Positions 39,691-57,570 of a DNA stretch of 64,000 bases are shown one piece after another. Made by a program: the position numbers and the translations under genes. Within the stretch, counting starts at the first letter, position 1, and the number at the start of each line of letters is the position of its first letter. The notes beneath the pieces are model-generated. The model did not search any database and was not told the DNA's origin. It was given only the letters and a program-made list of their open reading frames with translations. Source of the stretch: Candidatus Woesearchaeota archaeon (lineage in GTDB: Archaea; Nanobdellota; Nanobdellia; Woesearchaeales; GW2011-AR9); assembly GCA_018696595.1 (NCBI GenBank), contig JABHQW010000008.1, positions 204,522 to 268,521 on the forward strand, written 5' to 3'.

Positions 39691-39765
39691 CTTATGCTTA
39701 AAACTAGGCTTGCATTATATATTTTGTGGTATTAATGCAATTCTACAGAATATTTTACATTTTTC

Positions 39766-39886
39766 AATATAGCACCGAACTCACTCTTTTGTTTGTGGTT
39801 CTTATTGTGGTCCCTCCCGGATGGAGCATCCCCAACCACAGACTAATGCCCATTTAATTATATCGTTCGTAACTTGGTGCTATATT
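39766..39886 (-). ncRNA. Candidate structured RNA: 121-nt hairpin with GGGGATGCTCCATCCGGGA motif
   Basis: AATATAGCACC(39766-39776)/GGTGCTATATT(39876-39886); GAAC/GTTC; inner TGTGGT/ACCACA-type helix around the motif. Confidence 0.45.
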
Positions 39887-39895
39887 AATAATAAT

Positions 39896-40117
39896 TTACC
39901 CTAAATAAAACCCTAACAGTTTCATTCTGTATAAAGCGAATCCTAACCACAACACCAGAAACAGATAGAAAATACTAAAGAATTTATTCAATGGAAACCA
40001 ATTAGATGTCCAGTGACTAACTTTTTGATGTAGTTTTCCCTCAGTAAAACTCAAAAAGATATAGCTCAAACAATCTATTAATATCAAGTACCAAATAATT
40101 CCTTCTGCGTATATCAT
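39896..40117 (-). CDS. Small membrane protein, unknown
   Basis: Hydrophobic ORF, DPANN-style. Confidence 0.4.
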   Translation of the reverse strand: MIYAEGIIWYLILIDCLSYIFLSFTEGKLHQKVSHWTSNWFPLNKFFSIFYLFLVLWLGFALYRMKLLGFYLG

Positions 40118-57428: not shown

Positions 57429-57570
57429 TATAAAACCCTCACCATTGCCATAAGGTCAAAATTCTAACAAATTTAACATTTAGTGCGTTACGAGGGGACG
57501 CTCCATCCGGGAACGTAGCACTATCAAAAACCAAAACGAGAATTTTGAAGGCAAAGAAGAGGGTTTTATA
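57429..57570 (+). ncRNA. Candidate structured RNA: 142-nt hairpin with GGGGACGCTCCATCCGGGA motif
   Basis: TATAAAACCCTC/GAGGGTTTTATA (12 bp), TTGCC/GGCAA, CAAAATTCT/AGAATTTTG, TAGTGC/GCACTA nested helices. Confidence 0.55.

What the first reader, a model, noticed from the sequence alone, without database searches (positions are those of the whole stretch)
39766..39886. Candidate structured RNA A, sharing a 19-nt motif with the 57.4-kb element
Seen: 11-bp perfect terminal helix AATATAGCACC/GGTGCTATATT, GAAC/GTTC, and on the minus strand GGTTGGGGATGCTCCATCCGGGAGGGACC. The 57.4-kb element has GAGGGGACGCTCCATCCGGGAACG (plus). Both also have GTTACGA 5' of the motif. In each case the motif strand matches the strand of both flanking genes. 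GC-rich islands like this are striking in such an AT-rich genome.
Basis: partly seen in the sequence, partly recalled or inferred. Interest (0 to 1): 0.75.

Follow-up and report, generated by a model that had tools for sequence, protein, structure and literature searches.

The report
Mobile DNA hairpins in Woesearchaeota
The two look-alike "RNA" elements in this archaeal genome are copies of a widespread family of small jumping DNA palindromes that share one tightly conserved folded hairpin tip, seemingly undescribed before, which may show how very small elements keep moving through these tiny-genome archaea.

Summary
The sequence observation holds; the RNA reading is only partly supported. 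The shared 19-nt motif (GGGGNNGCYCCMTNCGGGR) is the tip of a 120-170 nt palindrome. The genome carries 7 copies. The exact tip occurs in about 71 of 212 sampled genomes of the same order (Woesearchaeota), in 1 of about 170 genomes of other orders, and up to 45 times per genome; a reversed-pattern control is near zero. Rfam has nothing. Many copies end in terminal inverted repeats flush with 8- or 9-bp target-site duplications (20/135 and 10/56 copies; controls about 0). One genome holds more than 40 near-identical copies, and congeners lack both window elements at the orthologous sites. This is therefore a MITE-like family of non-autonomous mobile palindromes, not a conserved host RNA gene. 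Unusually, unrelated terminal-repeat families share the tip, not the ends. Tip positions 0, 9 and 19 covary as a triple (A-T-A or G-C-G: 118/135; replicated 56/60; tree-independent, p about 0.008), so the tip folds beyond a simple stem. Stem mismatches show no G·U excess and there is no strand bias. This favours folded single-stranded DNA; RNA is not excluded. Partner transposases were not found.

The parts
39766..39886 (-). Element A: type-A palindrome, one of 7 copies in this genome
39815..39833 (-). Conserved tip of A, GGGGATGCTCCATCCGGGA
39835..39840 (-). Tip-proximal helix P3 of A, 5' side (TGTGGT)
   Evidence: sequence; covariation of P3
39806..39811 (-). Tip-proximal helix P3 of A, 3' side (ACCACA)
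   Evidence: sequence; covariation of P3
39876..39886 (-). Terminal arm of A, 5' side (AATATAGCACC)
39766..39776 (-). Terminal arm of A, 3' side (GGTGCTATATT)
39734..40117 (-). About 384-bp segment (element A plus a 74-aa ORF) missing between PCNA and the MarR-like gene in both congeners
57429..57570 (+). Element B: type-B palindrome, 142 bp
57494..57512 (+). Conserved tip of B, GGGGACGCTCCATCCGGGA
57483..57492 (+). P3 of B, 5' side GTGC-GT-TACG
   Evidence: sequence; same layout with compensatory changes in other type-B copies
57514..57521 (+). P3 of B, 3' side CGTA-GCAC
   Evidence: sequence

Best explanation
Elements A and B are copies of a large family of MITE-like, non-autonomous mobile DNA palindromes of Woesearchaeota. 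Shown: 120-210 bp palindromes with no transposase gene of their own; terminal inverted repeats of several unrelated sequences (GGCTCTGT..., GGCTTCATCC..., GGCTAAGTC... with 9-bp target duplications; GTATGTGCATAGC, GTATTTGTTTAGC with 8-bp ones); copy numbers of 0 to 45 between related genomes; no element at the orthologous sites in congeners; and one invariant tip shared by all. Inferred: transposases recognise the ends in trans and make the 8- or 9-bp staggered insertions. The palindrome can fold back as single-stranded DNA, for example on the lagging strand. The tip then forms a short stem (YCC/GGR with an MUNCG loop) against which the upstream R-GGGG tract docks, giving the base triple R0.(Y9-R19). 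This folded tip is read by a common, unidentified host or transposase-associated factor, which would explain why it is kept while the ends change. My confidence in the mobile-palindrome part is about 0.85-0.9; in the single-stranded-DNA tip mechanism about 0.4.
For: Tip in 6-7 places in its own genome. Exact tip in about 71 of 212 genomes of the order vs 1 of about 170 in other orders, reversed control 1 genome. Target duplications flush with inverted repeats: 20/135 vs 0.05 expected; 10/56 vs 0 in an independent set. In G061, 20 copies picked by their ends rather than by the tip all carry the tip or a variant of it, several with exact 9-bp duplications, and three different bodies share one end family. 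Sites without the element in both congeners. P3 plus tip covariation 0.575 vs 0.19 shuffled and at most 0.18 slid. Triple covariation at 0/9/19: 118/135, 56/60 in new genomes, follows 7.6 of 8 tree-independent switches, p about 0.008, with position 12 as a negative control. No G-U over A-C excess, 135 vs 148; no strand bias.
Against: No partner transposase found: IS1595, IS4/IS5 DDE_Tnp_1, IS256, IS6 and Y1 models are all absent from G061 and from the window's genome. The window's own copies have no clear target duplication or shared terminal repeat, so they are old or moved otherwise; A lies in a 384-bp segment rather than a clean 121-bp insertion, and deletion in the congeners' ancestor is not excluded. 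In the G061 burst the tip (mean minor fraction 0.055) is not clearly more conserved than the ends (0.050). The DNA-versus-RNA argument is indirect. The triple could also reflect two alternating pairings (R0-Y9 or Y9-R19).
Confidence: 0.85

Rival explanations
1. The tip works as RNA: transcripts carrying the hairpin bind a conserved RNA-binding protein or act as a small RNA, and transposons have spread or captured the RNA module. (This competes with the single-stranded-DNA mechanism of the tip, not with the mobility of the elements.)
For: Strict covarying tip shared by rod-like and three-way-junction bodies; triples of the A.A-U / G.G-C kind are known in folded RNA (own knowledge: tRNA 9-12-23); strong RNA folding; elements are mostly intergenic (19 of 115 cores overlap an ORF of 100 aa or more).
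Against: No G-U excess in stems; no orientation bias to genes; positions not conserved within the genus; no copy found in congener G001; no Rfam match.
Confidence: 0.25
2. Ordinary MITEs: the tip has no function and is merely an ancestral central sequence inherited by diverging families.
For: Young copies in G061 do not show a clearly calmer tip than ends; MITEs often form full palindromes with stable secondary structure (PMC10969869).
Against: Ends, arms and overall architecture have diverged beyond recognition while 12 of 19 tip columns are invariant among 77 distinct rows (sample chosen by a tip pattern); the triple switches together repeatedly.
Confidence: 0.2
3. Recombination sites of another kind: integron attC sites or REP-type hairpins moved by Y1 (RAYT-like) transposases.
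For: Single-stranded hairpin recognition is known for both (own knowledge); archaeal integrons exist (PMC9668308).
Against: Ends do not match the RYYYAAC/GTTRRRY boxes recalled for attC (no dedicated pattern search was run); scattered singly; target duplications are present; Y1 transposases are not associated (9 of 18 genomes with the tip, 5 of 14 without, none in G061 or the window's genome).
Confidence: 0.03

Closest known systems
Prokaryotic MITEs (e.g. Sulfolobus SM1-SM4, Correia/NEMIS, MITEAba12)
   Same: Under 500 bp, terminal inverted repeats, target duplications, multicopy, mostly intergenic, no transposase gene (PMC10969869)
   Different: One invariant, triple-covarying tip is shared by families with unrelated ends and two target-duplication lengths; not reported from DPANN archaea in the library searched
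ERIC/IRU elements
   Same: About 127-bp intergenic palindromes spread across a higher-rank clade, copy number variable between relatives (PMC10969869)
   Different: Different sequence and host domain; ERIC has no known shared tip across different terminal-repeat families (own knowledge)
REP/BIME hairpins moved by RAYT (Y1) transposases
   Same: Extragenic hairpins with a conserved recognition part (PMC2817692 abstract; own knowledge)
   Different: Here 8-9 bp target duplications and no Y1 association
Integron attC sites
   Same: Imperfect palindromes with conserved extra bases, active as folded single strand (own knowledge)
   Different: Conservation is at the tip, not at the base; no arrays seen; ends differ

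Membership tests
MITE | Short (under 500 bp), no transposase gene | tested here: met
   Elements of about 120-300 bp; no ORF of transposase size inside
MITE | Terminal inverted repeats | tested here: met
   for many family members; window copies have palindromic arms but no shared end family
MITE | Target-site duplication flush with the ends | tested here: met
   20/135 and 10/56 copies vs about 0; not seen for the two window copies
MITE | Autonomous partner with the same ends | tested here: inconclusive
   Not found in loci searched; five transposase models negative in G061 and the window's genome
MITE | Mobility (polymorphic sites, multicopy) | tested here: met
   Sites without the element in congeners; burst in G061
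Known Rfam RNA family | Covariance-model match | tested here: not met
   only tRNAs, at gathering threshold over the window and at E<=1 over 11 loci with copies
Structured RNA under RNA-level selection | G-U tolerated over A-C in stems of the functional strand | tested here: not met
   G-U 135 vs A-C 148, p=0.48; tRNA comparison only 6 genes, G-U 4 vs A-C 0
Structured RNA | Discrete transcript | not testable with these tools
   No RNA-seq available
Integron attC site | RYYYAAC / GTTRRRY core boxes at the base | tested here: inconclusive
   Ends defined by target duplications read GGCTCTGT..., GTATGTGCATAGC... etc. and do not resemble the boxes by eye; boxes recalled from memory, no dedicated search run
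RAYT/REP | Associated Y1 transposase | tested here: not met
   9 of 18 genomes with the tip, 5 of 14 without; none in G061 or the window's genome

The most novel reading that the evidence does not exclude
The tip is a portable folded module, probably single-stranded DNA with an intramolecular purine-type triple (R-GGG lying on the YCC/GGR stem), that several unrelated transposon families of one archaeal order carry because a common host or transposase-associated factor reads it. This would be a shared mobility or tolerance signal that does not lie in the transposon ends.
Probability: 0.3. Interest if true: 0.82.

Novelty: new variant of a known kind. Interest (0 to 1): 0.62.

Why it matters
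Mobile elements normally keep their ends and let the middle drift; here the middle is kept while the ends change. A 19-nt folded tip common to elements with 8-bp and 9-bp target duplications implies a shared recognition step that, to my knowledge, is not known for any transposon. Woesearchaeota have small genomes and few described mobile elements, so a family with up to dozens of copies per genome bears on their genome plasticity. It also warns RNA-discovery pipelines: covariation and folding energy alone would have filed this as a structured RNA.

Tried and rejected
Known Rfam family: rejected. Cobalamin riboswitch, suggested by one copy lying between an apparent AdoCbl-dependent ribonucleotide reductase and a cobO-like gene (L006, named from short translated stretches): rejected because other copies lie by unrelated genes and positions are not conserved. 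Cis-acting mRNA element: no orientation bias. Partner transposase by shared ends within loci and by Pfam models PF12762, PF01609, PF00872, PF13610, PF01797: none linked; the IS6-type loci carry neither the ends nor the tip. Palindrome boundaries by free extension of arms over-extended and were discarded; stricter extension and target-duplication-anchored ends replaced them. Contigs with a single inverted-repeat end in G061 were all assembly breaks at the repeat, not long elements. Bacterial hits of the tip pattern are taken as chance matches in GC-rich genomes. Viral contigs: only 4 pattern matches among 2.9 million, not followed further.

Full report
Observation. Their common part is a 19-mer, GGGG(A)(T/C)GCTCCATCCGGGA, with one difference. 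It is well beyond chance for the window, and both elements fold better than shuffles. Rfam has no match in the whole window at gathering thresholds other than tRNAs, nor at E<=1 across eleven loci with copies.

Copies and range. The window's genome (8 contigs, 1.19 Mb) has six places with the tip at up to 3 mismatches and a seventh at G000:C7:19750. Type A (L001, L003, L006, L218) and type B (L002, L004, L005) differ in body but share the tip. Among 61 relatives 25 have matches, with the reversed-pattern control almost empty. In a phylum-wide sample of 382 genomes the exact pattern is in 72: about 71 of 212 in the same order (counted from the table), 1 of about 170 in other orders of the class, with up to 45 copies (G145); the reversed control hits one genome. 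Named archaeal records with these copies are mostly Woesearchaeota or Nanoarchaeota MAGs. Copy number within the genus, by the tip pattern, is 0, 1 and 7.

Mobility. Extending the palindrome outward from the tip gives bodies mostly of 120-180 bp. Many end in inverted repeats flush with direct repeats of 8-9 bp. In 133 copies, 10 had an exact 9-bp duplication and 20 had at most one mismatch, against 0 of 665 swapped controls. A second scan found 20/135 vs 0.05. A further set of 60 copies from nine genomes (56 with enough flank; G243 and G064 appear to be one genome, so a few overlap with earlier copies) gave 10/56 vs 0. Ends fall into classes: GGCTCTGT..., GGCTTCATCC..., GGCTAAGTC... with 9-bp and GTATGTGCATAGC, GTATTTGTTTAGC, GTATGTATTAAGC with 8-bp duplications. 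A GTAATACTTCAGC class of about 299 bp can hold two tips in opposite orientation. In genome G061 the ends GGCTTCATCCAAAAA occur about 96 times at up to 2 mismatches. Twenty whole copies chosen by their ends all carry the tip or a variant of it, several with exact 9-bp duplications such as CCAGCAAAG, GGCTGGGCT and GCTTCACGT, and three different bodies share this one end family. In both congeners the PCNA to MarR-like gap is about 80 bp instead of about 460, and the methyltransferase to next gene gap is 53 bp instead of 206. The window elements are therefore not at conserved positions even within the genus. Clear target duplications were not found for the window copies; the site comparison cannot by itself separate insertion here from loss in the congeners.

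The tip. In 77 distinct 31-mers, the stem next to the tip and the tip stem covary strongly: covariation 0.575 vs 0.19 shuffled and 0.10-0.18 when slid, with 0 of 500 shuffles reaching it. The tip stem is Y9-C10-C11 with G17-G18-R19 around the loop MUNCG. Position 0, the base before GGGG, covaries with both partners of pair 9-19: A-T-A in 75 and G-C-G in 43 of 135 copies, and 56 of 60 in the later set. On a tree built from the flanks without the tip, 8 supported independent switches of 9/19 are followed by position 0 in 7.6 on average and never contradicted (p about 0.008), while position 12, inside the same block, does not follow. Block conversion of the tip is therefore unlikely. The simplest physical reading is a base triple with R0-G1-G2 lying antiparallel on the purine strand of the stem (a mirror repeat; in DNA terms a purine-motif triplex, from established nucleic-acid chemistry). 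Alternation between R0-Y9 and Y9-R19 pairs would leave the same trace. Copies in G039 with C8 changed to G weaken the pairing version, because its second pair would be G1-C8. The tip pattern was used to collect most copies, so invariance of the fixed letters is partly by construction; position 0 was free, and 9 and 19 were only loosely constrained by it.

DNA or RNA. Among stem mismatches flanked by good pairs, G-U and A-C are equally frequent (135 vs 148). An RNA under selection should favour G-U; the tRNA comparison (4 vs 0) has only six genes and serves as a sanity check. The tip strand has no preference relative to neighbouring genes. This leans to DNA but does not settle it; an RNA role of the tip alone remains possible.

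Mechanism. Shown: mobility, ends, target duplications, a conserved folded tip. Inferred: trans mobilisation by at least two transposases (two duplication lengths), fold-back of the palindrome as single strand, and recognition of the tip by a shared factor. The transposases remain unknown: models for IS1595, IS4/IS5 (DDE_Tnp_1), IS256, IS6 and Y1 are absent from G061, where the family has recently expanded, and from the window's own genome.

Known or new. The family meets the structural tests for MITEs (features as in PMC10969869) except an identified partner. That review lists archaeal MITEs from Sulfolobus, haloarchaea and others. No paper in the held library joins MITEs with DPANN, repetitive elements and transposases with Woesearchaeota, or riboswitches with Woesearchaeota; the library is incomplete, so this is absence in that library only. 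New in kind is the constancy of the tip across unrelated ends; I rate it a new variant of a known kind.

Noticed in passing
L061, L173 (about 299-bp elements with GTAATACTTCAGC ends): One element with two tips in opposite orientation, i.e. two hairpins within one pair of ends and 8-bp target duplications.
   Followed up: partly
L007, L040, L192, L227 (type E); L380, L381, L389 (permuted form): Junction-type bodies: the tip hairpin plus a second variable hairpin and a conserved UAGG after the tip stem; in the permuted form the second hairpin precedes the tip. The permuted form has target duplications; for type E none was seen.
   Followed up: partly
G061 (MAG NC_groundwater_1391, Candidatus Woesearchaeota): Massive recent amplification: about 96 occurrences of one end sequence in 1.1 Mb, many contigs broken at copies.
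   Followed up: partly
L320 (G061:C13:7977-8188): A 211-bp variant carries an extra hairpin inserted within the tip between GGGGAT and CCTACGGGA.
   Followed up: no
window 39886-40117: A 74-aa, membrane-like ORF next to element A lies in the same 384-bp segment missing from the congeners.
   Followed up: no
L006 (G000:C5:48977-48995): A type-A copy lies between genes resembling an AdoCbl-dependent ribonucleotide reductase and cobO, a place where a riboswitch could be suspected; other copies do not support it.
   Followed up: partly
L028 and other GGCTCTGT copies: The right arm often holds a small CGAGCGNAGCGAG hairpin just inside the end.
   Followed up: no
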